Assembly: GCA_947449695.1 (NCBI GenBank)
Contig: CANFST010000001.1
Location: forward strand, 1-64,000
Origin: Chitinophagales bacterium
Lineage (GTDB): Bacteria; Bacteroidota; Bacteroidia; Chitinophagales; CAIODY01
Direction of reading: 5' to 3'
DNA: 64,000 nt
How positions within the stretch are numbered: position 1 is the first letter of the stretch; each line of letters begins with the position of its first letter. The position numbers and the translations under genes are program-made. Below the pieces are notes generated by a model, which did not search any database, was not told the DNA's origin, and saw only the letters and a program-made list of their open reading frames with translations. Below, piece by piece: positions 25,412 to 43,782 of this stretch.

Positions 25412-28400
25412 CTATCTTATCAAAGTAACATTACCTGCAATTGGAAATAAAGTTCCATCAGCACATTCAATCTGCAGTTGATACATATACACATCGCTCA
25501 TCATAGGTTTTCCTTTAAACATACCATTCCAGCCTACTTCAGGTTTATTTACAGGCACATGCTCTGCGTTATATAATTCATTTCCCCATCTGTCATAAAC
25601 TCTTAAGAAAACAAGCTCTTTAATCCCCCTACCCTGAACGTAAAAAAATTGATTTTCAAATTTAGAAGTTGGTTTTGGTTCAAAAGCATTCGGAATATAA
25701 ACTGATTTGTCTTTATCACATAATACAATTATTGTAACTTGAGTACTATCCACACAACCATATTCATCGGTAAAGGTGACATGATAAACTGTATTTACAT
25801 CAGGTGCAACTACAGGATTTAAACAATTCAAACAATTGATGTTATAATTAGGTGTCCATTGCAAAGTGCCATTGTTCACAGTATCAGGCTTTATTGTGTA
25901 AGGCTGACCAGCAAAAATATTTACTGATGATGGAGAAACAGTTATTTTAGGCGGTGGAAATACCTGAAGAAATATATCAACACTATCTCCATTGCAATTC
26001 CCTGCAATTACCACTCTGTATGTTTCGTTAGCGGTAGCTTTTACAGTTAAATGCGATTGAGTAGAAATGATTTGATGTGTACTCATTTGAATCCATTGAT
26101 AAGTTAAACCACCATTTGCAAATAAATGAATACTATCTCCTACACAAACAATGGTATCGTGACCAGCGTTTGGAATTACTAAATTACGGACACTTAAAAC
26201 CACTTTTCCTGTATCTCTGCAACCCCATTGATTATCTACAGCTAGATAAAAACTATCTTTCAGATATAAAGTAACATTAGGTTCAGCGATAAATCTGCTT
26301 GGATGAAATGTATTGCTTAATGAAGGATAATACCAATTGTAATTAACGCCAGCAACAGGCGGACAACCAAGCTTGAAAGGCACACCTGGACAAACAGAAT
26401 CATTGCTACCAGTGCAAGCAAATGGAGTTGGATATACTACAAAAGTATCTTGAACAGATGATAAACAATTATAATGATTAGATATAGAATAAGTTGCAAT
26501 GAACTTTGCTAAAGAAGTGTGGCTGCTATTAAAATATGTCTTTGCAAATGGGTTGGGTGATATATTAGATTGGTAATTGGGCGTACCATCACCAAAGTTT
26601 ATTTGATAATTTACTATTCCAACATTCGCATTATTATCAGTAAAAACTGTTGAGAGCGGATTACAGCCTTGAGCTGAAGAAATAGAAATATTAACCGGAG
26701 GTAGTTTAGAAATACAAACTTGTTTTGAAATACTATCAAAACAACCAGCTGTATTTTTTGCATAAAGCCATGTATTGTAACATGTATCTATTTTACCATT
26801 TGGTAAATTATAAGCATGAGTTGAGTTGGCATTAGTGGTTGAAAATGTAGTTGAATTACCATCCCCAAAATTCCATTTATATAATAATCCTGCTGATGGC
26901 AGTGATGTACTTTGAAAATAAACTGTTCCATTATTTCCGCAGATGGTATCATTTATAATATGATAACCCATACTCAAATTGGTTAATACCACAACCACTT
27001 TTACACTGCTGGTATCAACGCAACTATTAATTGAGCTATCAATCAATAAAATATGATAAGTACCAGCTGATGAATAACAATATTGAGGGTTTCGGGCAGT
27101 ATCAAATGGAGTTAAATTATTCCAGTTAAAATACCAATGATAGCTTTTCACAGGGTCAGGATTTACAGATAAATTGGTAAAATGAACACAACCATTGGTA
27201 CATAAAGTATCAGGAATTGAACTAAATTTTGCTACAGGATAAGGATGTACTCTTATAAATGGTTTAATAATAGTATCATAACAACCATGCGTTGATTTAA
27301 TAATTAATTGCATAGTATAAGAGCCAACTGTACCAATAACAACATGAGGGGTATGATGATAAAAAGAAGCAAATAAATTATGATTAGCATCGTAAATATA
27401 CCATTGATAATGGGCAGTATCTAATGAGTACAATCCCATAATAGATGAGTCAATCATGGTAACATCTGCCTTTCCGCAGAAATCTTTTATAAATGGTGTC
27501 CAACTGAAATTAGCAATCGGTCCGTCAATATGAACAGTATCAGCAACTGGATAACTACAACCTATTCCATCATCAATAAACGCCTGCACCAATTGGTGCC
27601 CGATGATGAAATATTTATGACAAAAATTATAAACACCTGTATTATTATGTTGTAGCACATCAAATGAACCATCTGGATATTTAATAATAGGATTTTGAGT
27701 AGAGTTAGTTACCAGAGTGCAACAAATAGAATCTCCAACACAACCATACACGTTACTGCATTGCAAATGACCTATCGGACCAGACACATGTAACGGTTTG
27801 CAAACAGAATCGCTACATCCAAAGATACTTGAAACTTTCCAGCAAATAATATAATCACCAGGAAACCCAACAGGAATGCCTACTTTAGCTGGTATGCCAT
27901 TCGGCAAATTACGATTGTAAGTAAATGTAACATAAAAATTTAATGGTGCTGAAGACATTGAAACTGTAAGCTGGTCGTAAGCACCAGTTGTAATATTAAT
28001 TAATGAATCAAAAGACCCAGGGCAAGAAATAGAATCAGGCCCTAAAAAACCTGCAACTGGATTTGAAACATGAATTTTTAAACAAGTATCAGCAGAGCAA
28101 CCATAATTATTGGTTAAATGCAAATTGATAAATTGATACCCAGCTGTATTAAAAGTTTGAGAAAACTGATTATTACTAGAAGCACAAATACCGCTTGGAT
28201 TGCAGCCTGTATTACTCAATGTCCAGCAACGAGTTGTAATTACTCCAGTTGAACAATCGGATAAATTAACCGTTGCTCCAACACATATTGAAGTGTCGGA
28301 AAAAACTGCTATGCATGGTGTAATTCCATTAATTGAATTGACAGAAATATTTCCTGATTTACTGCAGCCATAACTATCTTTTATAAAATAATTACAAGAA

Positions 28401-31348
28401 GATGTTATAGGTGAATTATAACAAAAGGTATCTTTTGTCCAATTCCCGTATAAAGTATCCGACATACCATTGCCAAAATTCAGAACAGTATAATCTCCGT
28501 TGCTCATACAATAATTTGTAGCATTGTTAAATACCACACAATTACCACAATTTACAGTTAATGGTGAAGCAGTTATTTTTGGGTAGATATCATGAATAAT
28601 TATTGTTTGATAAGCCGTATCAGAACAAGTACCACCACTTATAATTAATTTCACATGATGGATTCCGCAATGCAAGTAAGTGTGGCAAGGGCGAATAAGT
28701 GTTGTGTCATTGTTAGCATTACCGCTTAGAAAAGTACTATCGCCAAAATCCCATTTAATATTATAAAGAAAAGGTCTGCCGGGGGTTGAATATTCAGCAG
28801 TGAAACACCAATTGTATTTTGAGCATTGTTCTGAATCAGTCACAATTGGATTAAAATTTAGTTGAGCTAAATAATTAGTGACCGAAATAGTTTTTGTAAC
28901 GGTATCAGGTGGGCAACCCAATGAGTCATTTTTAAAAATCATTATCACCTGATAATTACCTGCCTTACAAAAACAATGTGTTAAAGAAGGCACATGCAAA
29001 TGGTCTTTTGCTTTTAAATGATAAATTGTTTGGGATGGGACGCATGAAGGTGTATTAACAATAACAATGATGGATGTTGAGTCTAATGCTTCGATATTTG
29101 TTGGGAAAATGGTGTACGATGGAGAAAATTTCACACAAAAATTATTAGCCGTGCCTGACTGATTGCAGAGTGTTGAATCTTTAAAAGTGCCTAGTATACC
29201 TTTAACAATCACAGCATTCGAGATTCTGGTAGTATCCGGACAACCATTGTTTATGGTAGAAAAATTTGCATTGAATACTCCTAAATCGCTTATGCAAACA
29301 AATGCAGTATCACAACTAAATAAATCACCATCGGGTTTAGTGGTATTAGGGGCTGTGAAAAACCAATGACAACCTTTACCACATTTACTATTACTATTGA
29401 TGGAAGGAAGATGTGGCGTAGTTGGGATTAATTTAAAACAAGCTGAGCCATTTACCAAACATTGTTGTGGAGGTGTTACAACAAACTGTGCATTTATTTT
29501 ATGACCAACTGTTACCGCTTTTTTTAAAGTCAATGTATCAGCGCAATAAACGCCACCCATTGAATGTGTAATATGAACAACTTTAATAGTGAAGCATGTA
29601 TCAACAGTACTATGATAACAATGATGCATTATAGGTGAGGGGCTTGAAATATTAGGTGTGCCATCACCGAATATATATATATAAGCCGAATCGGAACGAT
29701 GATAAAACGCATCAACCAATGTTGAATCCACGTGAATAGTTACACAATTTGAATCGCAACTAACTGCTGCTTGTGATACTGTAAAATTTCCACTTTGATG
29801 AATCTGTGAAACCACAAATGAATCAATAGCGCAGCATCCACCATTGGCAGCAGATTGACATACTTTTAAATAAACTTTAAATCTGCCATAACCTGAAAAT
29901 GAAGCACAAAAAGCAGTGCCTGTGCCAATTGGTGCGCCATTCATATTCCCTTTCCACCATTGGAATATTGCACCATTATTGCTGTTGTTTTGTTGTGCCT
30001 TAAAACAAAATGGATGATTGGTTGAACAACGCACCGTGTCAACTACTGATTGATAAATTTTTGCTAATGGAGATGCATAAATGGTGATTGGAATACAGCC
30101 TGAATAATTCGCCACACAAGTATTGCAAGAATTGCCAACCTGACCATTCTGAAAACAAATGTTATAAACTGTTGTAGCTGAAATACTGCAAGGAAAAGAA
30201 TAATAATTAGTAGCTGCATTACTCACACCACCAAGTGGAATACTTGTTCCACCGCCTTGTGGCGTAGCAATCAATGTTCCCCCAATATTGCAATTCTGAC
30301 CAGCAAACGAAGGACTCATGTGTGCTGCTAAAGTGATTTGAACAGGCGAGCCGCAACAAACTGAATGCAAACTAGCATGCAAACTATCCACTACAACATT
30401 TTGAATACAAATAGCTTGATTAACTGAATCAATCGCTTTGCAACCTGTCAGTGAATCTTTTAATTCAACAATTACCTTTTTACAACCATAAGCATTAAAA
30501 GTATAATTAGTTGATGGATTGGAACTCGGACCAATACTTGGTGCAGCTGGTGGCGATGAAACTGGAGGGAACCAAAAACTATATAAACCAGTGCTTGTAA
30601 GCGAACTTCCAGTGGCTTGCACACTAACTGTTGAAGGTACTGTGCAACTATTACCACCTGTAACATTTAATGCAACACTTGGTGGACATGCAACCTTTAT
30701 ATAACAAGGTTTGGTAATAACTTTTGAGCATCCATGTGCATCAGTTACTGATAAACTAACAGTATAACAAGGCGGAATTGAATTTTTACAATTATAGGTA
30801 TGTGTTACCGGTGATGCTGAAACAGTAGTTGTGGTTGTATTATCGCCCCAATACCAAGTCAATGGACCATAAGGTGCAGAGCCTTGTGAAATGTTGGGTG
30901 TAAAAGTAGTAGTGAGTGTACCGCAATTAAAAGTATCTGTAGCTGAAAAATCAGGGTTAGGGAATGGATAAACAATAGCTACACATTGACAAAATGAATC
31001 TACCTGATGAGTGTTACGATTATAAATATACAAACATATTTTATACGAGCCATCAACCGTTAATGAATAGCTATTATTGCTGGTGGCTAAGCTACCTGCT
31101 TTAGCAGATAAAAAAGTTAAACCCCATGGACCATTGCAATTATGATTTGAACTAATTTGTTCTTTCCATACTGCTGAATCATAAATTCCAGTTGAACAAT
31201 TAACAAGAGGTAAAAAAAAAGGACCGCATTGGGTTACTGGAAATGCACCGCCATTTACTGTATTAAAACAAGCATGAAGGTTTTGCGCCTTTGAATTCGG
31301 CAAACACACAACAAACCAGATTAATAATAAAGTAAAGATTTTTCTCAT
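25412..31348 (-). CDS. giant cysteine-rich PKD protein with T9SS type B sorting domain
   Basis: A 1978-residue exported protein. The signal peptide (1-21, PNSKAQ) is followed by some 15-20 PKD-like or Ig-like beta domains, recognisable by WxFGDG variants (WDFGDSTF, WNFGDGNST, INFGDGTP, YIFGDGTP) and HxY or CxxY strands. Cysteines are frequent throughout (SC.DT, CHTY, CFTIK), which is unusual for PKD arrays and suggests many disulfides. The final 90 residues (IPNAFEPKPTSKFENQF ... LRVYDRWGNELY ... GNVTLIR) form the type B sorting domain for type IX secretion. It is probably a long adhesin or surface filament. It stands alone, convergent with the kinase gene. Confidence 0.88.
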   Translation of the reverse strand: MRKIFTLLLIWFVVCLPNSKAQNLHACFNTVNGGAFPVTQCGPFFLPLVNCSTGIYDSAVWKEQISSNHNCNGPWGLTFLSAKAGSLATSNNSYSLTVDGSYKICLYIYNRNTHQVDSFCQCVAIVYPFPNPDFSATDTFNCGTLTTTFTPNISQGSAPYGPLTWYWGDNTTTTTVSASPVTHTYNCKNSIPPCYTVSLSVTDAHGCSKVITKPCYIKVACPPSVALNVTGGNSCTVPSTVSVQATGSSLTSTGLYSFWFPPVSSPPAAPSIGPSSNPSTNYTFNAYGCKKVIVELKDSLTGCKAIDSVNQAICIQNVVVDSLHASLHSVCCGSPVQITLAAHMSPSFAGQNCNIGGTLIATPQGGGTSIPLGGVSNAATNYYSFPCSISATTVYNICFQNGQVGNSCNTCVANYSGCIPITIYASPLAKIYQSVVDTVRCSTNHPFCFKAQQNNSNNGAIFQWWKGNMNGAPIGTGTAFCASFSGYGRFKVYLKVCQSAANGGCCAIDSFVVSQIHQSGNFTVSQAAVSCDSNCVTIHVDSTLVDAFYHRSDSAYIYIFGDGTPNISSPSPIMHHCYHSTVDTCFTIKVVHITHSMGGVYCADTLTLKKAVTVGHKINAQFVVTPPQQCLVNGSACFKLIPTTPHLPSINSNSKCGKGCHWFFTAPNTTKPDGDLFSCDTAFVCISDLGVFNANFSTINNGCPDTTRISNAVIVKGILGTFKDSTLCNQSGTANNFCVKFSPSYTIFPTNIEALDSTSIIVIVNTPSCVPSQTIYHLKAKDHLHVPSLTHCFCKAGNYQVIMIFKNDSLGCPPDTVTKTISVTNYLAQLNFNPIVTDSEQCSKYNWCFTAEYSTPGRPFLYNIKWDFGDSTFLSGNANNDTTLIRPCHTYLHCGIHHVKLIISGGTCSDTAYQTIIIHDIYPKITASPLTVNCGNCVVFNNATNYCMSNGDYTVLNFGNGMSDTLYGNWTKDTFCYNSPITSSCNYFIKDSYGCSKSGNISVNSINGITPCIAVFSDTSICVGATVNLSDCSTGVITTRCWTLSNTGCNPSGICASSNNQFSQTFNTAGYQFINLHLTNNYGCSADTCLKIHVSNPVAGFLGPDSISCPGSFDSLINITTGAYDQLTVSMSSAPLNFYVTFTYNRNLPNGIPAKVGIPVGFPGDYIICWKVSSIFGCSDSVCKPLHVSGPIGHLQCSNVYGCVGDSICCTLVTNSTQNPIIKYPDGSFDVLQHNNTGVYNFCHKYFIIGHQLVQAFIDDGIGCSYPVADTVHIDGPIANFSWTPFIKDFCGKADVTMIDSSIMGLYSLDTAHYQWYIYDANHNLFASFYHHTPHVVIGTVGSYTMQLIIKSTHGCYDTIIKPFIRVHPYPVAKFSSIPDTLCTNGCVHFTNLSVNPDPVKSYHWYFNWNNLTPFDTARNPQYCYSSAGTYHILLIDSSINSCVDTSSVKVVVVLTNLSMGYHIINDTICGNNGTVYFQSTSLPSAGLLYKWNFGDGNSTTFSTTNANSTHAYNLPNGKIDTCYNTWLYAKNTAGCFDSISKQVCISKLPPVNISISSAQGCNPLSTVFTDNNANVGIVNYQINFGDGTPNYQSNISPNPFAKTYFNSSHTSLAKFIATYSISNHYNCLSSVQDTFVVYPTPFACTGSNDSVCPGVPFKLGCPPVAGVNYNWYYPSLSNTFHPSRFIAEPNVTLYLKDSFYLAVDNQWGCRDTGKVVLSVRNLVIPNAGHDTIVCVGDSIHLFANGGLTYQWIQMSTHQIISTQSHLTVKATANETYRVVIAGNCNGDSVDIFLQVFPPPKITVSPSSVNIFAGQPYTIKPDTVNNGTLQWTPNYNINCLNCLNPVVAPDVNTVYHVTFTDEYGCVDSTQVTIIVLCDKDKSVYIPNAFEPKPTSKFENQFFYVQGRGIKELVFLRVYDRWGNELYNAEHVPVNKPEVGWNGMFKGKPMMSDVYMYQLQIECADGTLFPIAGNVTLIR

Positions 31349-31510: not shown

Positions 31511-32011
31511 TTATTTCCCCTCCCTCAACATTTCGGCATAATTCATTTTTCGGGATAAAGCACTTACTGCTTTGGCTATACGCTTAGCTTTGGTTTCATG
31601 GGTTTTGGCAGATTCAATCCATTTGCTGAAATAATTCTGATGCGATTTGGGTTGTGCGTAAAAATATTTTTTTGCATTGAAGTCATCTTCTAAGCATTCA
31701 ACAAAATCAGCATCTAATTGGTATTCGGCTTTATCATGTTCTATCTCAACCTGAAGCGGAGCTCCATGAATTTTCTTAAGTTTTTTTCTGACATCAGCTT
31801 TCAAAGCCATAATAAAATCACCCTCACCCATTGGAATTAAAGCAATACCCGAAATTTCAAGTGCATCTAATCTTCCTTTGACACGAAAAGATTTTTTATT
31901 GTCAGGATAAATTTTGTTGGCTAATTCAGCAGGAATTTCAATGTAAGTCCAGCCAGTTTTTTCACCCATCTGGCCAAATTTTTTCATTATTGTTTGAAAT
32001 TTAATTTTCAT
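31511..32011 (-). CDS. YdeI/OmpD-associated family protein with DUF1905
   Basis: A 166-residue cytosolic protein. Residues 1-95 fit DUF1905, a small beta domain (GWTYIEIPAELANKIY, FRVKGRLDALEISGIALIPMGEGDFIMAL). The C-terminal part (DFNAKKYFYAQPKSHQNYFSKWIESAKTHETKAKRIAKAVSAL) is the YdeI/OmpD-associated helical tail. No enzyme activity is established for the family. Its start codon directly abuts the stop codon of the fibronectin-type gene (32011/32012), so the two are likely translationally coupled and it is the last gene of the four-gene operon. Confidence 0.85.
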   Translation of the reverse strand: MKIKFQTIMKKFGQMGEKTGWTYIEIPAELANKIYPDNKKSFRVKGRLDALEISGIALIPMGEGDFIMALKADVRKKLKKIHGAPLQVEIEHDKAEYQLDADFVECLEDDFNAKKYFYAQPKSHQNYFSKWIESAKTHETKAKRIAKAVSALSRKMNYAEMLREGK

Positions 32012-34156
32012 TTATCGCACTACAATTTTTTGTACTGCACTCAACTTACTTTGCTCACCGTTTGGATAATCTAAGCGCACAGCATATTCATAATTTCCTT
32101 TGCCGACTAATTCAGCATCATTGAACTGATTGAGTGTTGCATCAACATATTTATAAGCCACTAAATGATTGTCGTTGTACTTTCTGAAAATCACTACAAA
32201 ATAATTTTTTCCTTTCACATTCGCATTCCAAGCTAATTTGGTTATTCGTTTTAATGAATCATATTTCGCAGAAAAATTTTGTACGTTTTCTTTTACTGAA
32301 GCGTCAAATGGTCTTCCAGTAATAGGTTTCGAGAGTTCTGATTTATTTCCTGCTTTGTCAATAGCTTGTAATTGATAAGTGTAGAATTTTTTTGCAACCA
32401 CTTTTTCATCAGTGTAAGAATTGTCAGTTGGTTTCAAATGAGCATACACTTCCATTTTACCTTTTTCATTTGTTTTGTATAACAATTGTTCTTTCACATC
32501 CGTGTTAGTGCTTGGAATCCAATGTAAAATCACAGATTTATCAGTTACTTTAATATCGTCAAACACAGGTACAACGGGTGCTACAAGGTCAGGTCGTGCA
32601 ACTTTAATAATTGTAGAAAATGGTGAGTGATTGAAATTATTATCCAAAGCTGTTACTTTGTAATAAACAATTTTGTTCAAAGTTCGGGCATTCAAACTAT
32701 CTACAAACACTGTGTCGTACACCACATCTTTTGTAATCAATGAATATTCATCAGTCGGGTGGTCGGCCATATAAACTCTGTAGCCTTTCAAATCAGGTTC
32801 GGGATTCATTTTCCATTTCAAAACAATTCTTCCTGTGGTATCCATTCTTCCACTAATAATTGTTGGCGCTAAAGGCGGCGTAGAATCATGTATGTATAAA
32901 TATCTTGGGTATGACAAACTATTATTGCCTGCAGTATCTTCAGCCATCACCACATAGTAACTTGTTCCATATATATCCTTCACTTCGCTTGTTTGTGAAT
33001 TTTTTTCAGGTGAAATCATTTCTCCAATTTTTCTGAAAGGACCAGTTGCAACCGTACAATAGCCTACATAAAAGCCTTTCAAGTCATTTTCATTTTTTTC
33101 TTTCTTCCAACCGATTTGTACTTTTTTATTTTTATCTACATAAATAGAAGTAATCTGTGGTGGAACTGGTGGTGTTTTATCTCGTCCAAAACCCAGTACT
33201 GATGGGCTTGGAGCAGATTTTTCGGCAAATGGTGTGATACCAACAATACGATATAAATGTTTTACATAATTTTCTTTCACTTCATCTACATATGCTCCAC
33301 GTTGCGCCAAACCACTTATACTATCGGCTGTAACACTTATAGGTTCACGGCTAACGTTGAACCATTTTTTTCCATTGTCATCACTTCGTTGAATGATGTA
33401 AGCAGTAAATGCGGAATGAAACGCAATCACGGGCCATTCTAATTTCACACCATGTTCGGTGCTTTGTGTTGCCAATGGCGGTGGCGCAGGTAAAGTATCA
33501 ATCACATCAGTAATCAATAAAGTGAATGCAGAATCAAGGCGATGAGCTTTATCAAAATACAAACTTCGTAAGCGATAAATGTATGCTTTTCCTTTGGGCA
33601 GATTTTTTTCTACATAACGTAAACCCAATCTTGAAGCGGTTTTTGCGTCATTGTCAGCAGCGAATAAAGCGAAACCCATTCTGTTACTTTGTTCATTGTA
33701 TTTGTTCAAAATGTTTTGTTTTTCGCCTTCGGTTTTCGCCATTTGTTTTTGATAAACTGATGCTGCTGCGATTACTTCATAATGATTTGAAGTATCAATT
33801 ATTTTTTGCCAAACAGATTCTTTCAACGGACGAAATGTGTCTGCAACAGGCTTAAATACAGCATTTTTTGCAGAAGACAAATCTGTGATTTCTGCTTTTT
33901 CTAAAATGTAACCTTTTTTATTCGATTCACTCCAAGCTGTATTTTCTGTAACTACCCAGCGAAAAACTGTAGAGTCTTTGTAATTTTTTTTCACCAATAA
34001 CAAATGTGGTCTGCCATCCAAATTCATGGTTTCTGTTTTTGGTACATTTTTTTTCTTTGCAGCACCAGTCTTTGAAACTATTGCTGTGCCTTTATTTTGA
34101 GCATTTGCAAAAAAAGCAAATAAAGAAAATGATAAAATGAAAAATATTTTTTTCAT
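32012..34156 (-). CDS. exported protein with fibronectin type III domains
   Basis: A 714-residue protein with a signal peptide (1-19, FFANAQ). After a helical region (about 110-210) come four to five fibronectin type III domains (about 215-640) marked by VKLEWPVIAFHSAFTAYIIQRS, VQIGWKKEKNENDLKGFYVGY, IVLKWKMNPEPDLKGYRVYM and VILHWIPSTNTDVKEQLLY. The end (KLSAVQKIVVR) shows no clear type IX sorting domain. It lies 18 bases after the giant protein gene and probably works with it at the cell surface. Partner and ligand are unknown. Confidence 0.8.
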   Translation of the reverse strand: MKKIFFILSFSLFAFFANAQNKGTAIVSKTGAAKKKNVPKTETMNLDGRPHLLLVKKNYKDSTVFRWVVTENTAWSESNKKGYILEKAEITDLSSAKNAVFKPVADTFRPLKESVWQKIIDTSNHYEVIAAASVYQKQMAKTEGEKQNILNKYNEQSNRMGFALFAADNDAKTASRLGLRYVEKNLPKGKAYIYRLRSLYFDKAHRLDSAFTLLITDVIDTLPAPPPLATQSTEHGVKLEWPVIAFHSAFTAYIIQRSDDNGKKWFNVSREPISVTADSISGLAQRGAYVDEVKENYVKHLYRIVGITPFAEKSAPSPSVLGFGRDKTPPVPPQITSIYVDKNKKVQIGWKKEKNENDLKGFYVGYCTVATGPFRKIGEMISPEKNSQTSEVKDIYGTSYYVVMAEDTAGNNSLSYPRYLYIHDSTPPLAPTIISGRMDTTGRIVLKWKMNPEPDLKGYRVYMADHPTDEYSLITKDVVYDTVFVDSLNARTLNKIVYYKVTALDNNFNHSPFSTIIKVARPDLVAPVVPVFDDIKVTDKSVILHWIPSTNTDVKEQLLYKTNEKGKMEVYAHLKPTDNSYTDEKVVAKKFYTYQLQAIDKAGNKSELSKPITGRPFDASVKENVQNFSAKYDSLKRITKLAWNANVKGKNYFVVIFRKYNDNHLVAYKYVDATLNQFNDAELVGKGNYEYAVRLDYPNGEQSKLSAVQKIVVR

Positions 34157-34174
34157 GATGAACGCTGATTTTTT

Positions 34175-37100
34175 TTAATGACGAATAACTGGTAATGTGC
34201 TATGAATTGTTGTGTTTAAAACCGGAGGAAAATTGCAACTTCCTCTTGTGTAACCATACTCTTTGAAATGTGGGTACAAGAATTCTACATCGCTGCTTGG
34301 ATCAATTTGATTACAACTGCTGTAAAATGGCGGACGATAAAAAATTCTAAACTTCACACAATCATCTGTAGGGTTGCGATAAGATTGCGGTGATGGCACA
34401 CCTATGTTTTGATGAATCAACCATGTGTTGATGTCAATTGAATTTAAATGGAAGAATGCAGCCGTTGTCAGTATTGGGTTTGAAGGGTTTGTTGAAAGCG
34501 CTATTAATCTTCCAAAATCAATTCCAACATAATTATTCAGACAAGTGTTGAATGAATTTTGTACCGCTAAATAATTATTCAAACAAGTGTGATATAAAGT
34601 ATTGTTCAACAAATAATGATTCGGCAAGCCCAATGCACTTGCAGGATTCACAAATGATGAACTTACACCACTAAATCCTGCGCTGCTAAATGATGTACTG
34701 AAGCTGCTTCCGCCACCAACACTAAATGAAGAGGAAGAAGAATAACTTCCAAAGCCAGTGCTGAACATGCTACTTCCAACACTTGTTGCAAAATGAAACA
34801 TGGATGAACCGCCAACTGAAGTACCTAACAATGCACCACCTATAAATGAAAGACCATAAATACTATTCGTTGGGCGCACTTCATAATCTTGCAAAGGCTG
34901 GTCTAAATCACTTGGTTGATTCATAAATGGAATTGCTTGATTGAAACTAATCCACTGATAACCTGGATAATGAAAGTAGTAAGGATAAGTTCGTAATGAA
35001 TTTGAATTGCTTTCAATCAAACTGCCGTAATCAGTGTACCACTTGCTGCTGGCTATTTTCGAACCTAACAATGGGTCACGAGTTTGTGTAAATGAACCAC
35101 GAGATGAATTGTCAGCAATTAAATCATAATAGTCTAAAGGTTCATCGGTATCAAATCCAACTTCATCAATTCTATCGGTAGAATTTGTTCCAACATTTCT
35201 GAAATAAGCAGAATTGGAATTGGTGAATTTTTCAGCGAAAGTATTGTATTTGCTAGTTTTGAAGAAGAACATGTACAACAAATGTTCGTTCGCATTTACC
35301 TGATGTGCAGGGTCTAAATTTTTGTGAATTGTTTTCACACCACTCTGAACAGATGATGCATAGCGGCTTGTATCAGTTGTTGCATGAGACATAAAGCGAA
35401 TTGATGACAACATGAACGTGTAACAACCAGTATGCGGAATACTACTATCTCTCATCACAATTTGGCAAGCATAAATTTTTTGATTGTTTAATTGCGGCAC
35501 TCTGAAAGTAACCAAATGCGTATAGGTATTGTAAGATGCAGTGCCAGTCAAGGTTGCAGAGCCATCCATAGGAACAAATTTTGCAATCAGTTTTTGTGTT
35601 TTACATACATTTGGTGCAGGTGCTAACAATGGATCCATACTTTGCCACATAAACACTTGCCCTTCATGACATTCATTTTGCAAATAATAACGCTGACGGA
35701 GCATTGGGTAAGTATATACCACATTGCTTTCAGGAATATGGTCAGGATATGCGCCAGTTGTGAAATTCACGGTTTTTGTTTCACGAACAGGAGTGCCATC
35801 TAATTTCAAACTTTGTGTCCAAGTGCCTGTGCTGTTCATTTCGTAAGCCACCAATGAACAAGTTAAAGTATATGGCGTTCTTGGCAACAACATATTATCA
35901 GGTAACATGGTGATTTGGTCTCGGTTGCTGTTGTAACTAATCGCCGCAGATGTAGTAGCTGTACCATTTTTCAGCTCAAATTTTTCCAACACAAATTTAA
36001 AAGTTCGAGTTCTATCCGTCCCATTATCTAATGTTTCGGTGATAGAAAAACTTCTATCCAGCGATTGATTAAATGCGGCTTGCATAATTTCATCAACGCC
36101 TGCATTACTTTCCGGTTTTACATCCGCAATGATATTCATCCCAGCCAAAGGGTTCTCCAATGGCGGTGTGCAACGATTTCCTTGCTGCACTTCAAAATTA
36201 CAATTACCATGCACCAAGCCACCAAGAATATTATAGTAGGCGGCAAAATTTCCTTTGAACCAATTTGGATTTGGGAAACCGCCTTGCAACAAACCAGCCA
36301 TTCCTAAATCAATAATTGTATATCTGCCATGAATAAACCACAAATCAACACTAATTCCGATTTCACCTGCGGCATAAGCGTAGAGCCTACCTTGAGCATA
36401 CCAACCATTTGCACCAACGCTACCAACAACACCATCGCAAACAGTGCCAGCCGGAACTTTTACTAATGACAAATCAAAGCCAAAACCTAATCTTAATCGT
36501 GCATAGAAAATCAAGAATTGTAAATCACCAGTATCGAAATCTAAACCTGCACCCATTGCAAAACCATCACCCGAAGTTATTCCGCCTGCCCGTGTTGAGC
36601 CACTGATGCCAGTTGTACAATGGTCTCGAATAAACTGTGGCAAGTCGGCATCAGTCGGTAATGGTAAATTCATGCCCACCATAAAGTACATCCAAATTTG
36701 TGCATTGAGTGGACCCAACACAATATCTAATCCTAATTTTTCAGAAGGCGTTCCAATTTTTATGTACCACAATCCTGTGCCGTCAGCATGAATCCATGCA
36801 GTGCCGACAACATTTCCTGGTTGTGTATGCCCATGAATGATTCCACCTGCAATATTGGCTGATACATTTAATACGCCATCAAAAATATTGTGTGAAAAAC
36901 TGTAACCGATTCCAACATGGCAACCCACTTGAGGTTCATTCACATCGGTTACACCTTGTGTCATAAATCTTCCATTCCCATTCAAGTACATACTATCCAC
37001 TCCACCATCACGAGTGAAGAAAGCACCAAATTCTATATCGCCATTAAACGCATTGCCACCGCCACTTGTACCAAAAATCACTTTCACTTTGAACCCAAAA

Positions 37101-40100
37101 CCCATATGGTCATCAGGAATATAATTCACTCCACTATTACTCGATGACGGGCTTGAAGCATCAGCAGTAGAGGCATTTCGCATGATGTTGTTGGCACCGG
37201 TTGGTAAATTTTGCATCCGCATTCCATATGATGCCCCACCACCTAAACCATACAATGCGAATTGTCCGAATGAAATTCCTGTACTAAATAAAACTTGTGC
37301 ATCCACCGCCCAATAACGATTGCTGCGAACAGTTCCTGATTGCACCATCGCTGTAATATCAATGCTCATACCTGCATGAATACCAACATGAATATTGCCT
37401 TTGAAGCCATTGCCATAAGTAGCATCATCATTGTAAATTCGTAAGTGTCCATCAATTGAAACCACACCGACTGTTCCTGAAATATCAATTCCATCTAATT
37501 GAATATGGTCGAAACCCCAGATTTGAATAGGGTTTGAAACATTTTGTAAATTTAATTTTCCAAGAATTGACATCGAAGCTGCTGCACCAAAAGTGTTTCT
37601 TTCGCCAGTAATATTTACAGCAATTGTGAATTGAATGCCCATCAACGGACTACCATCGCTTGCTGTGCCTGATGCAATTCCAATATCTCGTATTTCAATC
37701 GGGAAACCTTGCGCTCTTCTATTTGAACCACTACCAGAGCCACCTCCACCACTTGGCGCATCCATCAATTCATTTTCATATAAAGATTGATGCATTAAAT
37801 ATTCATCATCCTGTTCAGTGTTAGGTCCTCTTTCATTGTAAGCATAATTCTCAAAATCATGAAAATCAAAATTGCCACCATGACCACCACTTCCGCTACC
37901 AGAACCACCCCCCAAACTGCTAAATGGTGAGCCATCATCATTTCCAAAATGAACAGCACTCGGATTAATGTAAGGCGCAGTAGTTTGAATCACCAAATTT
38001 TGGAAGGTTAATAGATCTAAATTCACATTTCGTGCTGGCCCAACATTATCAAAGTGAACACTGATGCCACCAGTTAAAGTCGCAGCAGCATTAAATCTTC
38101 CACTTCCACCATTGTAGGTTAAATCAATATGTGATGAACGATCCAAATGAATTGTTGCTTGCCACAAATTTGCATTGATGTCAGCTCGTGGATGAATATT
38201 GAATGTGAAATTTAATCTTCTCACACCGCTCGTTCTGCCGCCACTAGCTGTATCACTCATTGCCAAAGTTGCACCATAATACAAGGCGCTATCACTGATT
38301 GGAATTTTTATTCCACCGCTTAAGTGCCCACTAACAAAGGAATTGGCGGTAATGGTCAAACGGAAAGTATCCAGCGAAAATGCCCAGTGGTCAACATTTC
38401 CATTTCCAAAACTGATAATGTTATGAGCAAACAAACTTCCACTCACTCCTCTTCTGTCAATCAACAAATCCTCAATACCTGCTGTAAATCTTCCTGTGCC
38501 AGTGTTGTGTTGAAATTCAGGCGGAAGGCTTACTGACAATCGCTTCATGTAAAAACCCTTCCAAGTTGCATCCGTCGTTCCATTGTAAGGTGCGGCTGCA
38601 TAACCATCAGGGAAATGCATATCAGTGCCATTTCGTGAAGCACTTAAATCCAATACTAAATTTTCAGCATTGAAGCCCCAGCCTGGCGCTCCAACAATTT
38701 GAAAATGCGGCATATTAGCTTCAATAATAAAATCATTTGGTTTGCGAATGGTGGTAGAAATTGTTAATTCAACTTGCCCTGCACCCACTGTCCCATCTGT
38801 ATTATCAGGTACAATCACATTTCGACTAAAGCGAACAAAACCTTTTATTCGCAGCTCTTCAAAGCCTTGACAATTCCATTTTACATAAGTGCCGCTATCC
38901 CCAGATGAAATTCCATTCCAGCCTTTTAAGCCGATAAAAGTGCTATCACCAAACATTGCCTGAATATCACCTGGCAAAAACAACATACCTTTTCCACCAC
39001 ACAATCCGCCTGGATGAATTTCAATTCCACCTGCGCCTAATCCCAAAGTGCTATGTAAATCGGGTATTTCAAAGGAAGTAACCGCATTTACTGAAGCACT
39101 ACGTTTTCCGAAACTCATACCTACAATTCCGACAGTGAATGCAACACCATCGATTGTGTTTTGGACACCCAAAGGCATCCCAATTGGTTCGCCTCTACCT
39201 GCGCCAATCAATCGAGCAACGCCACTTGCAGCATGGTTGATAGAAGTAATTGTATTTTGCGAAAGCCCTGGAATTACTCTTCTAATCATCGTATCATTCG
39301 CAATGGTAGGATTGATAAGGCTTGTAGAATCAACCGTTGCTTTTACAGTTCCTTCAAAAAATCTGAACAAATTATTTCCTAGGCGATGTGCCTTTAAATT
39401 ATTAAAAGCCACTTTCACTTTGCAATGTAAAAACGGAACGTAGATAGTTCCTGTTCCAGCTCCATGTCCGTTAGATGAATTGTTAGTTACTGTTGCAATT
39501 TTCATTGAGAATAAACCAACACGTATTGAATCATTGACTGCTAAATGATTTGAATCAGCAGCAGTTTCGGTGATACCTGGTGTGTAAGTACAATTCGCAT
39601 TACAATCAGGCGAAACGGCTGGCGATTCTTCATCATGCGGCGTTGAGCCACCACCGCCTGTTCTGTGATTGCCAATGAAAAACCTTTTTTGAACTGTGTT
39701 ATAAATTCCTGCATTCAAATTATTTCTATCAACTGCCCAACCGACTCTTACATACCACCAACCTGTATCTTGTGCATGACTAAAATCTAAATTTTTTGTG
39801 AGGTCAGTATAAATTCTATCATCTGCAATGGTAGGCGTAGAGCGAATTTCAGCCCAGTTGGCAAAAACAGTTCCTGTAACTGTATCACGAATATTTGAAT
39901 TGTGAATATCTGCTCCATTGCCTCCAAAGTCGCTCTGACGTGAGGTTTGCAGTACCCAACGTTGATTAATCACACCTTGTGTGTAATATAAATTTGTATT
40001 TCCTGTAGTATTGTCATTTCTTACTAAATCCATTTCGGGCTGTAACAATGCTGGTTTGTCAGCAGTTTTGAAATTAATTCCAACTGATGATGAAGTTGCA

Positions 40101-41440
40101 ATCGTATCATTATCGTTCGGTGAATGAATAGTTGGCGAACTCATTCCTGCTTTGAAAATCGAATTGACACTAGCGTTGTAAGTATTGTTACTATTGTCTT
40201 TCATAATACAAGTGCCATCCACATTATAGGTTGAATTATTAACCAACCAAGCTGGTGCACTTGTATGACTTTGATTAACGATAATCTGCGAAGCCCTGTG
40301 TTTATCAATGTCTGCCAACAATGTAACATCTTGTTGTGTGTTCAATGGACCTTGAGGCCAATCAATTTGCCGAGCTTCATGTTCTGAATTATTTGGTGCA
40401 GGAACATCAGAAGTTGAAATATTGAAATCAGTATTGAATCTTCGATAATCATTTGAATAAGGATCGTATTGTACAATCACAGGAAAGGTTGTCCAAGGGT
40501 TCCACATATTGATTTGAGGGAAATATATTTGGGTTGTAAATGCAGAGCTAGTGCCGTTTACATGAGCATTACCATAATCAAAATAACAAACGGTGGAAAA
40601 GCCATTTTCCTTAAAATAATTTACTGCATTGTTATCCTTTACTTGCACTTGATAAGCGTAACGCTTTCCTGATTCTAATGCCAAATCAGTAGAAGTGATA
40701 TTGTACAATAAATTTTTTGTGTACTGGTCAATGATGATATTGGTGCTGTTGGTCATGGCATCGTTTGGTGTCATTCCATCAGGCACTTCCACCACTTTCA
40801 AATGATACTCAATGTCTGCTCCAACCATATTTATTCCAGCAGGCATCGTCCAACTCAATACGACATTTTGAGGCGTAATAGCATTCACTCTTGAACTACA
40901 CAATGGCTGTGCAAGTTGCGGTGGTTCAATCATTCTCAACATAAACATCGCACAAGATGCACCTGCATCAGGTGGTGATGAAAGCAACGTTACAGTCGAA
41001 GCACTCCAGTCATAAGCTGTTACACAATAAGAATAGTTGCCATCAGGAATTACGCCAGCAGCAATCATTTCATTGCTGATTCCAGTATAACTTAAATTGG
41101 ATGGATTGTATAAAGGTTGCAAATCATTACGATTCAATGTTAGATTTTGTAATGGTAAAATCTCGATGTATTGTGATGGTCTGTTTGATGGCAACAGCGT
41201 TGCAGCTATGCTTCCATCAGAGTTTCGCAATCTTCCACCAAAATAAATTTTGTAAGAATTAGTAGCTGAAGTGTTTTGCACATTCAATGTCACCTTACTC
41301 ATGTCTGTTACGTAATCACGAATGTAACTGCTGTAAGGCGGTTGAATTTGCACATGCACCTGCAACGGATAAACTTGTGCTGATGCAACTTTTAACAACA
41401 AACTTAAAATCAAAACGAGTGAAAATATTTTTTGCTTCAT
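34175..41440 (-). CDS. giant exported protein with TANFOR-like N-terminus
   Basis: A 2421-residue exported protein. Signal peptide 1-21 (ASAQ). Residues about 25-180 (VHVQIQPPYSSYIRDYV ... KIYFGGRLRNSDG) look like the TANFOR domain, found at the start of large Bacteroidota proteins. Fibronectin-like parts follow. From about 620 to 1650 run long alternating beta strands rich in Gly and His (HLSGGIKIPISDSALYYG, GISVHFDNVG, FKGNIHVGIHAGMSIDI), with two Gly/Ser linkers (near 1160 and 1240). A Ser/Gly-rich low-complexity part lies near 2230-2290. No type IX sorting domain is visible at the end (HSTLPVIRH). It follows an outer-membrane barrel gene by 17 bases. The function is unknown; a surface fibre or an envelope-spanning beta structure are possible. 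Confidence 0.8.
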   Translation of the reverse strand: MKQKIFSLVLILSLLLKVASAQVYPLQVHVQIQPPYSSYIRDYVTDMSKVTLNVQNTSATNSYKIYFGGRLRNSDGSIAATLLPSNRPSQYIEILPLQNLTLNRNDLQPLYNPSNLSYTGISNEMIAAGVIPDGNYSYCVTAYDWSASTVTLLSSPPDAGASCAMFMLRMIEPPQLAQPLCSSRVNAITPQNVVLSWTMPAGINMVGADIEYHLKVVEVPDGMTPNDAMTNSTNIIIDQYTKNLLYNITSTDLALESGKRYAYQVQVKDNNAVNYFKENGFSTVCYFDYGNAHVNGTSSAFTTQIYFPQINMWNPWTTFPVIVQYDPYSNDYRRFNTDFNISTSDVPAPNNSEHEARQIDWPQGPLNTQQDVTLLADIDKHRASQIIVNQSHTSAPAWLVNNSTYNVDGTCIMKDNSNNTYNASVNSIFKAGMSSPTIHSPNDNDTIATSSSVGINFKTADKPALLQPEMDLVRNDNTTGNTNLYYTQGVINQRWVLQTSRQSDFGGNGADIHNSNIRDTVTGTVFANWAEIRSTPTIADDRIYTDLTKNLDFSHAQDTGWWYVRVGWAVDRNNLNAGIYNTVQKRFFIGNHRTGGGGSTPHDEESPAVSPDCNANCTYTPGITETAADSNHLAVNDSIRVGLFSMKIATVTNNSSNGHGAGTGTIYVPFLHCKVKVAFNNLKAHRLGNNLFRFFEGTVKATVDSTSLINPTIANDTMIRRVIPGLSQNTITSINHAASGVARLIGAGRGEPIGMPLGVQNTIDGVAFTVGIVGMSFGKRSASVNAVTSFEIPDLHSTLGLGAGGIEIHPGGLCGGKGMLFLPGDIQAMFGDSTFIGLKGWNGISSGDSGTYVKWNCQGFEELRIKGFVRFSRNVIVPDNTDGTVGAGQVELTISTTIRKPNDFIIEANMPHFQIVGAPGWGFNAENLVLDLSASRNGTDMHFPDGYAAAPYNGTTDATWKGFYMKRLSVSLPPEFQHNTGTGRFTAGIEDLLIDRRGVSGSLFAHNIISFGNGNVDHWAFSLDTFRLTITANSFVSGHLSGGIKIPISDSALYYGATLAMSDTASGGRTSGVRRLNFTFNIHPRADINANLWQATIHLDRSSHIDLTYNGGSGRFNAAATLTGGISVHFDNVGPARNVNLDLLTFQNLVIQTTAPYINPSAVHFGNDDGSPFSSLGGGSGSGSGGHGGNFDFHDFENYAYNERGPNTEQDDEYLMHQSLYENELMDAPSGGGGSGSGSNRRAQGFPIEIRDIGIASGTASDGSPLMGIQFTIAVNITGERNTFGAAASMSILGKLNLQNVSNPIQIWGFDHIQLDGIDISGTVGVVSIDGHLRIYNDDATYGNGFKGNIHVGIHAGMSIDITAMVQSGTVRSNRYWAVDAQVLFSTGISFGQFALYGLGGGASYGMRMQNLPTGANNIMRNASTADASSPSSSNSGVNYIPDDHMGFGFKVKVIFGTSGGGNAFNGDIEFGAFFTRDGGVDSMYLNGNGRFMTQGVTDVNEPQVGCHVGIGYSFSHNIFDGVLNVSANIAGGIIHGHTQPGNVVGTAWIHADGTGLWYIKIGTPSEKLGLDIVLGPLNAQIWMYFMVGMNLPLPTDADLPQFIRDHCTTGISGSTRAGGITSGDGFAMGAGLDFDTGDLQFLIFYARLRLGFGFDLSLVKVPAGTVCDGVVGSVGANGWYAQGRLYAYAAGEIGISVDLWFIHGRYTIIDLGMAGLLQGGFPNPNWFKGNFAAYYNILGGLVHGNCNFEVQQGNRCTPPLENPLAGMNIIADVKPESNAGVDEIMQAAFNQSLDRSFSITETLDNGTDRTRTFKFVLEKFELKNGTATTSAAISYNSNRDQITMLPDNMLLPRTPYTLTCSLVAYEMNSTGTWTQSLKLDGTPVRETKTVNFTTGAYPDHIPESNVVYTYPMLRQRYYLQNECHEGQVFMWQSMDPLLAPAPNVCKTQKLIAKFVPMDGSATLTGTASYNTYTHLVTFRVPQLNNQKIYACQIVMRDSSIPHTGCYTFMLSSIRFMSHATTDTSRYASSVQSGVKTIHKNLDPAHQVNANEHLLYMFFFKTSKYNTFAEKFTNSNSAYFRNVGTNSTDRIDEVGFDTDEPLDYYDLIADNSSRGSFTQTRDPLLGSKIASSKWYTDYGSLIESNSNSLRTYPYYFHYPGYQWISFNQAIPFMNQPSDLDQPLQDYEVRPTNSIYGLSFIGGALLGTSVGGSSMFHFATSVGSSMFSTGFGSYSSSSSFSVGGGSSFSTSFSSAGFSGVSSSFVNPASALGLPNHYLLNNTLYHTCLNNYLAVQNSFNTCLNNYVGIDFGRLIALSTNPSNPILTTAAFFHLNSIDINTWLIHQNIGVPSPQSYRNPTDDCVKFRIFYRPPFYSSCNQIDPSSDVEFLYPHFKEYGYTRGSCNFPPVLNTTIHSTLPVIRH

Positions 41441-41457
41441 AATGAAGAAATTATTTT

Positions 41458-43134
41458 TTAGAATGAATAAGTATAACTCAAATTTGCTCTACCTTCTGTA
41501 AATGCTTTACTCACAACGCCAGTGTTTCTTAAAATGCTCAAACCACCACGTAAACTGTGATGCTTGTCAATTCTATATCCTGCGGTAAATCCACCACTCA
41601 CCACCGAACCATTGTTGCTACCATTATTGAAACTTAATTGATAATTTGCATTGATGCCTAATGGGATATTTTTCTTAATAGTTTTATTAAATCCAACGCC
41701 TGGTCCAATCAATAAATACTCGTATAGTTTGCTTACGTTTTGAGTGAAATTTGCATTTACTGAATAACCCATATTTCTTGCAAACCATTGATGTCCGTAG
41801 TTTACAGACACCATTTTTACGTTGCTGTTGTTATAACCTAATTGATTGGTGTATTGATTAAAATCCTGTGTTTGCTGATAAATTAAATTGATGTTGAAAT
41901 TATTTGCACACACTTTATTGCTGAAATTCAAACTGTGATACATGGTGAAATTCATGTTCGCAATCGCTAAACGAAAACTATCTGTAACTGGCAACAATCC
42001 AGCTTTTTGGGTAATGCCATAATTTGAAAAGTTTATTCCTGCTGTATAATGATTGGAAAAAATGACATTCACATTTGCGCTGTAAATTTTTGATTCAGTA
42101 GTTGCGGCTTTTGTTTTTAGCACATTGTCATATTGCAAACCAAAGCTGCCATTGAATTGTAACTTTTGTTTGAATGCATTGAAATTAGGCGCAATAGTGT
42201 ACGATTGAATATCTTGTTGAAAGTAATAAGCACCAAGTGTTGAGAAGGTCGGGTCAATTCTTTTATAATTTAAACTTACACCCCAGACGGTGAAATTCAA
42301 ACCCACGGCTGCATCACCAGCTGTATTGATGTGTGATGAAGCATTTACAACTTGATACTGTTTTAGTTTATTCAAATATTGATTGCTCCCATCAATCTTC
42401 AAAGTGCTGTCATTTCTAGTATTTTCAGTCATCAAACTGGCTGCAGCATTCGAAGCCAAATAAAAGTGTTTGAAAAATGTGAATCGAAAACTATAACCTA
42501 AGGTTTTATTTTGCTTGGGTGAGTATTGATTAAAGTCAGCAGTTGGAACTACAATTGAACTTTCTTTATCAGCAATGGATGTGAAAATCAAATCGAAAAA
42601 ATTCTGCGGCTTACCAATCCCGACTTTTGCAGCCCAACCCCAACGTTCGAATGTGGGCGTTCCTTTGGTATTCAATGAATCAAATGCAATGGCTTTTTTG
42701 AATCTTCCATACATTGCACCAAAGCGAAAAATTTTCGGATTTAATTCTACACCTCCACCTAAAAACCTTGAACCGCCTAAAGTGTAAGGATTAAACGTCA
42801 TGCTACTATAACCCAAATAAAATCGCATCCATTTGTAAGTAGGGCGAACTCCATATTGATTGAAAGGCTGATTGTAGCTGCGTTGTTGTTCACTTACTGT
42901 TGCGCTGATGGGGAAAGCCATTCCATAAATTACTGGTGTTAAGTTTCCATTCAGCATCCAAGTGAAAGGCGCATATCGTGGGTCAATGCCTTGAACGCCA
43001 TATCCCAAAACAGTTCCAGTTATGCTACCCGAAATGCGAAAAGGTTTTTCTTTTGAAATTGTACTTAATTCTTGTGCATTCGCTGAAATAATGCACAGCA
43101 GAACGAACATGCAGAGTGTTAGGTTTTTCTTCAT
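41458..43134 (-). CDS. outer-membrane beta-barrel protein of the giant-protein operon
   Basis: From the ATG at 43134 this is a 558-residue protein with a signal peptide (KKNLTLCMFVLLCIISANAQ). It has many amphipathic strands (WMRFYLGYSSMTFNPYTLGG, GYSFRFTFFKHFYLASNAAASL, HSLRGGLSILRN) and a final ANLSYTYSF with the phenylalanine typical of barrel assembly. The size suggests about 20-24 strands. An upstream ATG at 43176 in the same frame would put 14 residues before the signal peptide and is less likely. It is the first gene of the leftward operon that contains the giant protein. It may anchor or export the giant, by analogy with other Bacteroidota adhesin-barrel pairs; it does not look like PorP/SprF. 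Confidence 0.75.
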   Translation of the reverse strand: MKKNLTLCMFVLLCIISANAQELSTISKEKPFRISGSITGTVLGYGVQGIDPRYAPFTWMLNGNLTPVIYGMAFPISATVSEQQRSYNQPFNQYGVRPTYKWMRFYLGYSSMTFNPYTLGGSRFLGGGVELNPKIFRFGAMYGRFKKAIAFDSLNTKGTPTFERWGWAAKVGIGKPQNFFDLIFTSIADKESSIVVPTADFNQYSPKQNKTLGYSFRFTFFKHFYLASNAAASLMTENTRNDSTLKIDGSNQYLNKLKQYQVVNASSHINTAGDAAVGLNFTVWGVSLNYKRIDPTFSTLGAYYFQQDIQSYTIAPNFNAFKQKLQFNGSFGLQYDNVLKTKAATTESKIYSANVNVIFSNHYTAGINFSNYGITQKAGLLPVTDSFRLAIANMNFTMYHSLNFSNKVCANNFNINLIYQQTQDFNQYTNQLGYNNSNVKMVSVNYGHQWFARNMGYSVNANFTQNVSKLYEYLLIGPGVGFNKTIKKNIPLGINANYQLSFNNGSNNGSVVSGGFTAGYRIDKHHSLRGGLSILRNTGVVSKAFTEGRANLSYTYSF

Positions 43135-43245
43135 GCGGTTGAGGTTAGGAAAATCAAAAGTAATATCCAGATTCAAGAATAAATGTTTGATTTATGCACC
43201 AAAAATCAACATTTCGGAAATACTAAAAAATGAGGGATGTCAGAA

Positions 43246-43782
43246 TTATTTCTCTCTGATTCTTTTATAGACCTTTATTGAGAGCATGATGATAACAATA
43301 AAAAGTAACAAGCCAATTGCTCCATAAACCAAACTCATACCTTGTTGTACTTCTACCAACATCACAATAGCTAATAAAAAAATCGTGGCAACTTCATTCC
43401 AAATTCTGAGTTGTGATGATGAGTATTTGAAAACTCCTTTTTGCTGTTCTTTATAAATTTTGTGCAACGAAAAATGATAAGCGTATAAACCAATGACAAA
43501 AAGTATTTTTAGTAAAAACCATGTTGGTTGATAATCTAAATAACCAAATAGTTTCATCATCCAAACTCCGAAAACTAAAGTCAATACTGCACTTGGCATG
43601 GTGATGCCGAGCCACAATCTTTTTATCATCAAATTAAATTGATTGCTTAAAATTGTTTTTTCAGGTTCATTTTTGTCTTGCGCTTCGCGATTGTAAATAA
43701 ACAATCGAACGATGTAAAACATGCCACTGAACCATGTTACAACGAAAATGATGTGTAGCGCTCTGATGTATTGAGGATTCAT
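43246..43782 (-). CDS. hemJ: HemJ-like protoporphyrinogen oxidase (CopD family)
   Basis: A 178-residue membrane protein with four helices plus a C-terminal one (about 145-170). It carries H10 in IRALHIIFVVTWFSGMFYIVRLF, the conserved histidine and signature of HemJ, and WFLLKILFVIGLYAYHF in the third helix. HemJ oxidises protoporphyrinogen IX to protoporphyrin IX in organisms lacking HemG or HemY. Its start overlaps the ferrochelatase stop in an ATGA, so the last two steps of haem synthesis are translationally coupled. The broader CopD family label would also fit, but the context makes HemJ likely. Confidence 0.8.
   Translation of the reverse strand: MNPQYIRALHIIFVVTWFSGMFYIVRLFIYNREAQDKNEPEKTILSNQFNLMIKRLWLGITMPSAVLTLVFGVWMMKLFGYLDYQPTWFLLKILFVIGLYAYHFSLHKIYKEQQKGVFKYSSSQLRIWNEVATIFLLAIVMLVEVQQGMSLVYGAIGLLLFIVIIMLSIKVYKRIREK

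What the first reader, a model, noticed from the sequence alone, without database searches (positions are those of the whole stretch)
31511..43134. Operon of outer-membrane barrel, 2421-residue TANFOR-like giant and FN3 protein
Four genes with gaps of 17, 18 and 0 bases form one unit. The giant has a TANFOR-like start, about 1000 residues of alternating Gly/His-rich strands and no visible T9SS sorting domain. The first gene is a large barrel that does not look like PorP/SprF. A barrel with a giant beta protein and an FN3 partner suggests an undescribed surface or envelope-spanning machine whose export route is open.
Basis: partly seen in the sequence, partly recalled or inferred. Interest (0 to 1): 0.65.

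Follow-up and report, generated by a model that had tools for sequence, protein, structure and literature searches.

The report
Outer-membrane barrel and giant-protein cassette
Three neighbouring genes (a large outer-membrane pore-like protein, a 2421-residue surface-type giant, and a smaller companion) form an accessory cassette found across the Bacteroidota, and the pore-like protein looks like the missing outer-membrane partner of a giant-protein family that includes bacterial toxins, whose export route has been an open question.

Summary
The unit is three genes, not four: in two same-genus relatives the OmdA gene directly follows the hemJ-like gene (empty site). The giant begins with a TANFOR domain, known from Bacteroidota polymorphic toxins (Jana 2020), but carries no toxin, immunity gene or T9SS sorting domain, and close class relatives are conserved end to end. 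The first gene is an undescribed barrel of about 24 strands (AlphaFold pLDDT 90), not PorP/SprF. Of 80 named barrel loci, 74 have a TANFOR gene directly downstream; in 297 sampled genomes, 67 of 81 barrels have one within 12 kb (chance about 1%). In seven genomes TANFOR and barrel are fused in one polypeptide. Barrel and TANFOR-domain distances correlate (r 0.66), whereas the FN3 gene follows the giant's body class perfectly (3 changes, the minimum, against 17). Toxin-type TANFOR loci carry the barrel too. I read it as a cargo-specific outer-membrane docking and display system: TANFOR binds the barrel; body plus FN3 form an exchangeable passenger. Whether the passenger crosses through the barrel or through T9SS is open; every TANFOR genome sampled has SprA.

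The parts
32012..43245 (-). three-gene accessory cassette; absent between the same flanking genes in two same-genus relatives
   Evidence: in L187 and L188 the hemJ-like gene is followed after 4 bp by OmdA
41458..43134 (-). outer-membrane beta-barrel, 558 aa, signal peptide, about 24 strands, no POTRA; no Pfam or NCBIfam family
34175..41440 (-). TANFOR giant, 2421 aa, signal peptide, no sorting domain, no toxin domain
40571..41377 (-). TANFOR N-domain of the giant (residues 22-290), the part shared by nearly all barrel-linked giants
35123..39613 (-). class A body of the giant (residues 610-2106), shared with about 25 giants; antiparallel all-beta, Gly-rich
34178..35122 (-). C-terminal tail of the giant (residues 2107-2421), no homologue found at this distance
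32012..34156 (-). FN3-domain companion, 714 aa, signal peptide, no sorting domain; its tree follows the giant's body class
31511..32011 (-). OmdA/DUF1905 gene: flank, not part of the module
43246..43782 (-). hemJ-like gene: other flank of the cassette

Best explanation
The cassette encodes a cargo-specific outer-membrane docking and display system. All three proteins enter the periplasm by the Sec pathway (signal-peptide-like starts seen). The barrel inserts in the outer membrane and binds the N-terminal TANFOR domain of the giant. The giant's beta-rich body, with its class-matched FN3 companion, is the exchangeable passenger, which ends on the cell surface, held there through the TANFOR-barrel contact. 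In some lineages the passenger carries a toxin tail; in this genome it is a conserved, probably structural or adhesive, non-toxin body. Shown by sequence: linkage, fusion, co-variation, modular exchange, absence of a sorting domain. Inferred: physical binding, surface location, and the crossing step. For that step I slightly favour help from the T9SS translocon SprA, with the barrel acting like a SprF-type shuttle or anchor, over passage through the barrel itself.
For: Directly downstream TANFOR gene in 74/80 barrel loci chosen only by barrel similarity, FN3 in 62/68 assessable. Phylum sample: 67/81 barrels have TANFOR within 12 kb. TANFOR and barrel fused in one polypeptide in 7 genomes, with profile matches E 1.5e-37 and 5.7e-41. 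Barrel-TANFOR distance correlation 0.66, partial 0.65, against barrel-FN3 0.13, partial 0.00. Four body classes need 3 changes on the FN3 tree and 17 on the barrel and TANFOR trees. Confident barrel model. Toxin-type loci carry the same barrel. Every barrel and TANFOR genome sampled has SprA. The three genes are present or absent as a block. SprF/PorP precedent: PMC9143113, PMC12618676.
Against: No binding, localisation or secretion data. SprA co-occurrence is confounded by phylogeny: the SprA-negative genomes listed are mostly one family. 37 of 108 TANFOR hits had no barrel within 20 kb, including one in the window's own genome (L040). Barrel and TANFOR-N are adjacent, so co-variation may partly reflect linkage; the same holds for body and FN3. 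In the fusions TANFOR precedes a barrel, which places it at the periplasmic side, so the giant might stay periplasmic.
Confidence: 0.5

Rival explanations
1. The barrel is itself the translocon: a two-partner pathway in which TANFOR plays the part of a TPS or usher-recognition domain and the passenger threads through the roughly 24-strand pore, without SprA.
For: TANFOR lies N-terminal to the barrel in fusions, where POTRA or usher N-domains sit; nearest solved folds include 24-strand ushers and MtrB; passengers have no sorting domain; some loci carry polymorphic toxin-type tails that must leave the cell.
Against: No POTRA or energy source seen; no genome with the barrel lacks SprA; Foldseek TM-scores are only 0.47-0.52.
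Confidence: 0.27
2. A periplasm-confined or membrane-spanning structural complex: the giant stays below the outer membrane as a scaffold or bridge held by the barrel.
For: In the fusions TANFOR must be periplasmic or in the lumen; the body is a long antiparallel beta meander whose weak 3Di neighbours include LptD and ApoB.
Against: Polymorphic toxin-type tails in sister loci and T9SS-type neighbours (PMC7073777) point outward; the body match is not credible (TM 0.1-0.16).
Confidence: 0.13
3. An ordinary TANFOR polymorphic toxin exported by T9SS, with the barrel an unrelated neighbour.
For: TANFOR domain present; the named family is a toxin class (PMC7073777).
Against: No toxin domain among 84 C-termini apart from one CHAT protease, no immunity gene, and close class A pairs conserved to the end; barrel linkage far above chance and fusions.
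Confidence: 0.06

Closest known systems
TANFOR-domain polymorphic toxins of Bacteroidetes (TIGR02542; Jana, Salomon, Bosis 2020, PMC7073777)
   Same: N-terminal TANFOR domain, signal peptide, Fn3 gene nearby, T9SS-bearing host
   Different: No toxin tail, no immunity gene, end-to-end conserved body class; the barrel is not mentioned in that paper
PorP/SprF-like shuttles with type B CTD substrates (PMC9143113, PMC12618676)
   Same: Outer-membrane barrel encoded next to its giant cargo; SprA in the genome
   Different: About 24 strands instead of 14, no PorP_SprF match, cargo has no CTD, the shared domain is N-terminal
Two-partner secretion (TpsB/TpsA, CdiB/CdiA)
   Same: Barrel plus a very large partner with a constant N-domain and an exchangeable 3' part (general knowledge of that system)
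   Different: No POTRA, no TPS domain, larger barrel, extra FN3 companion
Chaperone-usher pili (FimD, PapC)
   Same: Barrel of similar size; Foldseek hits with TMq up to 0.47
   Different: No sequence similarity, no usher Pfam match, no chaperone or pilin genes seen

Membership tests
TANFOR polymorphic toxin class | N-terminal domain homologous to TIGR02542 | tested here: met
   E 3e-7 (30 bits), 1.4e-8 on the domain alone; below the curated cut-off of 67 bits
TANFOR polymorphic toxin class | C-terminal toxin domain | tested here: not met
   No Pfam or NCBIfam match in the last 350 aa
TANFOR polymorphic toxin class | C-terminus polymorphic among close relatives | tested here: not met
   Close class A pairs are conserved end to end; Flavobacterium-type loci do show it. 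The window's own tail had no close relative to compare with
TANFOR polymorphic toxin class | Immunity gene downstream | tested here: not met
   FN3 follows directly; OmdA belongs to the native flank
T9SS substrate | Type A or B C-terminal sorting domain | tested here: not met
   No TIGR04183, TIGR04131, Por_Secre_tail or CHU_C in the giant, nor among the relatives' C-termini
T9SS substrate | SprA translocon in the genome | tested here: met
   G000:C5:30600-37715, 2498 bits
T9SS substrate | Secretion depends on T9SS | not testable with these tools
   Needs mutants
PorP/SprF family | PorP_SprF profile match, 14-strand FadL-type barrel | tested here: not met
   No match in 17 members; about 24 strands
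Two-partner secretion (T5bSS) | POTRA domains plus 16-strand TpsB barrel, and a TPS domain in the partner | tested here: not met
   No POTRA or TPS Pfam match; strand count
Chaperone-usher | Usher family match with chaperone and pilin genes | tested here: not met
   No usher Pfam match; neighbouring genes were not systematically annotated for chaperone or pilin

The most novel reading that the evidence does not exclude
A previously unrecognised Bacteroidota outer-membrane secretion and display pathway: a roughly 24-strand barrel that recognises the N-terminal TANFOR domain and exports giant passengers without a sorting domain, serving both toxins and structural proteins, with exchangeable body-plus-FN3 cassettes.
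Probability: 0.27. Interest if true: 0.9.

Novelty: new variant of a known kind. Interest (0 to 1): 0.66.

Why it matters
The 2020 paper that defined TANFOR toxins left their export route as a hypothesis and reported no outer-membrane partner, probably because the barrel matches no domain family. Naming that barrel makes the question directly testable with one gene deletion. It also shows that TANFOR is a general docking module that carries non-toxin bodies as well, and that passengers are swapped together with a matched FN3 companion.

Tried and rejected
PorP/SprF, usher, TpsB or any Pfam family for the barrel: no match. Toxin tail and sorting domain in the giant: none. OmdA ('bacteriocin-protection') as an immunity gene: rejected, native flank and not recurrent. 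My first reading that the unaligned tail (2107-2421) meant a polymorphic toxin was dropped after close class A pairs proved conserved to the end. Body as beta-helix or known fold: AlphaFold low confidence, no real match. Barrel against viral structures: uninformative. My first impression that Flavobacterium-type toxin loci lack the barrel was wrong; it lies just beyond the stretch first fetched.

Full report
Observation. The four ORFs, strand and gaps are as described. Pfam gives OmdA plus DUF1905 for the last gene, FN3 for the third, and nothing for the barrel or the giant. NCBIfam gives TANFOR (TIGR02542) at residues 28-145 of the giant, E 3e-7, below the curated cut-off. Residues 800-1800 are Gly-rich (13-17%) but not His-rich. 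Hydropathy alternates in residues 1248-1755 (lag 2 autocorrelation 0.16, shuffle sd 0.04). Barrel, giant and FN3 protein all start with signal-peptide-like sequences ending in AQ; OmdA has none (sequence).

Boundary of the unit. In two same-genus genomes the hemJ-like gene (88-92% identical) is followed after 4 bp by the OmdA gene (73-85% identical), with no barrel, giant or FN3 between them (junction sequences). The unit is therefore the three genes in 32012-43245, gained or lost as a block, and the fourth gene is native. OmdA had no relative in about 140 other locus stretches. Cassette GC is 0.379 against 0.352 for the window.

Synteny. The first order-level search found related proteins in 14 of 61 genomes, and their neighbourhoods showed barrel, TANFOR giant and FN3 together, in the order barrel-giant-FN3 or giant-FN3-barrel. 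A search of named genomes with the barrel alone gave 467 relatives, with the best 80 kept. In 74 of the 80 a TANFOR gene is directly downstream (72 of 75 gaps under 50 bases), and FN3 follows in 62 of 68 assessable loci. Because loci were chosen by barrel similarity, this linkage is independent of the selection. In 297 genomes sampled across the phylum there were 81 barrel hits of at least 120 bits in 58 genomes; 67 have a TANFOR domain within 12 kb, where about 1% would be expected by chance. In the other direction, 71 of 108 listed TANFOR hits have such a barrel within 20 kb.

Fusion. In seven genomes a single reading frame holds a TANFOR domain followed by the barrel: L174, L175, L176, L177, L178, L179 and L180. 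Profile comparisons confirm both halves: TANFOR E 1.5e-37 over 255 columns (six of the seven) and barrel E 5.7e-41 over 508 columns. Since the N-terminus of an outer-membrane barrel faces the periplasm (established knowledge), TANFOR probably acts at the periplasmic side or inside the lumen.

Two evolutionary units. Across 70 loci, tree distances of barrel and TANFOR domain correlate (rank r 0.66; 0.65 after removing FN3), while barrel and FN3 do not (0.13; 0.00). Giants fall into four main body classes. Mapped on the FN3 tree these need 3 changes, the minimum; on the barrel and TANFOR trees they need 17 each (shuffles about 27). For class A alone, the class of the window's giant, the counts are 1, 11 and 12. 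So barrel plus TANFOR-N and body plus FN3 behave as two cassettes that have been recombined. Gene order alone could keep neighbours together, so this is evidence of modularity, and only suggestive of binding.

What the giant is. Its TANFOR domain (1-290) is shared with nearly all relatives, residues 610-2106 with about 25 (class A), and 2107-2421 with none at this distance. Among 84 C-termini of TANFOR giants, nearly all barrel-linked, there was no T9SS sorting domain and no toxin domain apart from one CHAT protease. Close class A pairs stay conserved up to the C-terminus. The barrel-linked Flavobacterium-type giants (L161-L164) differ: they are roughly 50-99% identical over the first 500-1000 residues and then mostly below 25%; one of those tails resembles the TNT toxin weakly. 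Thus the same barrel serves toxin-type and non-toxin passengers, and this window has the non-toxin kind.

Structure. The barrel model is confident (pLDDT 90, pTM 0.80). I count 23-24 long strands and no POTRA. The closest solved folds are MtrB (TMq 0.52) and FimD/PapC ushers (up to 0.47), which shows size class only. There is no PDB sequence relative. The body model (residues 600-1790) is all-beta antiparallel in two halves joined by a disordered stretch, pLDDT 66.5, and the Foldseek matches have TM near 0.1-0.16, so no fold is assigned.

T9SS. The genome has SprA (G000:C5:30600-37715). All 58 barrel genomes and all 81 TANFOR genomes in the sample have SprA, and none of the 67 SprA-negative ones has either (Fisher 8.7e-8). 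The SprA-negative genomes listed are mostly one family, so this is weaker than the number suggests.

Literature. In the library available only PMC7073777 treats TANFOR. It reports Fn3, SprB, PKD and CTD neighbours and proposes T9SS export as a hypothesis; the words barrel and porin do not occur in it. Barrels paired with T9SS cargo are known as PorP/SprF (PMC9143113, PMC12618676), but those are 14-strand FadL-type proteins and their cargo has a type B CTD. Most subscription papers and preprints were not searchable, so novelty is judged against this library only.

Judgement. Partnership of barrel and TANFOR domain is well supported by sequence evidence; the function of the class A body and the crossing step are not. 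I rate it a new variant of a known kind: the family is known, while the barrel partner, the fusions, the non-toxin classes and the matching of FN3 to body class appear new.

Noticed in passing
25412-31348 and L040:14290-20000: The PKD giant next to this locus (weak type B sorting domain) has a paralogue, 45% identical over about 1880 residues, beside the third TANFOR locus of the same genome.
   Followed up: partly
L040:2109-10913: A TANFOR giant plus FN3 in the window's own genome (C35) without an adjacent barrel; it may use a barrel in trans.
   Followed up: no
L111:4587-7373: Barrel-linked TANFOR protein ending in a full CHAT protease domain (E 9e-56).
   Followed up: partly
L156:12453-14909, L161:3895-6351, L162:13547-15994, L163:3444-5891: In Flavobacterium-type toxin loci the barrel gene encodes about 815 aa, with roughly 250 extra residues; no Pfam match.
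   Followed up: partly
L062:18019-19074, L064:17973-19052, L073:17458-18471, L074:17536-18540, L112:17219-17746, L116:18050-18589: Several class A loci carry an extra gene with a signal-peptide-like start between giant and FN3, a possible fourth component.
   Followed up: no
L181, L182, L183: Barrel-TANFOR pairs lie beside very large unannotated genes whose products start like 'QWTVVPYD'; no informative Pfam match.
   Followed up: partly
L035:5905-6834, L063:11643-12578, L099:5603-6454: TANFOR domain alone as a separate protein of about 280-310 aa directly after the barrel.
   Followed up: no
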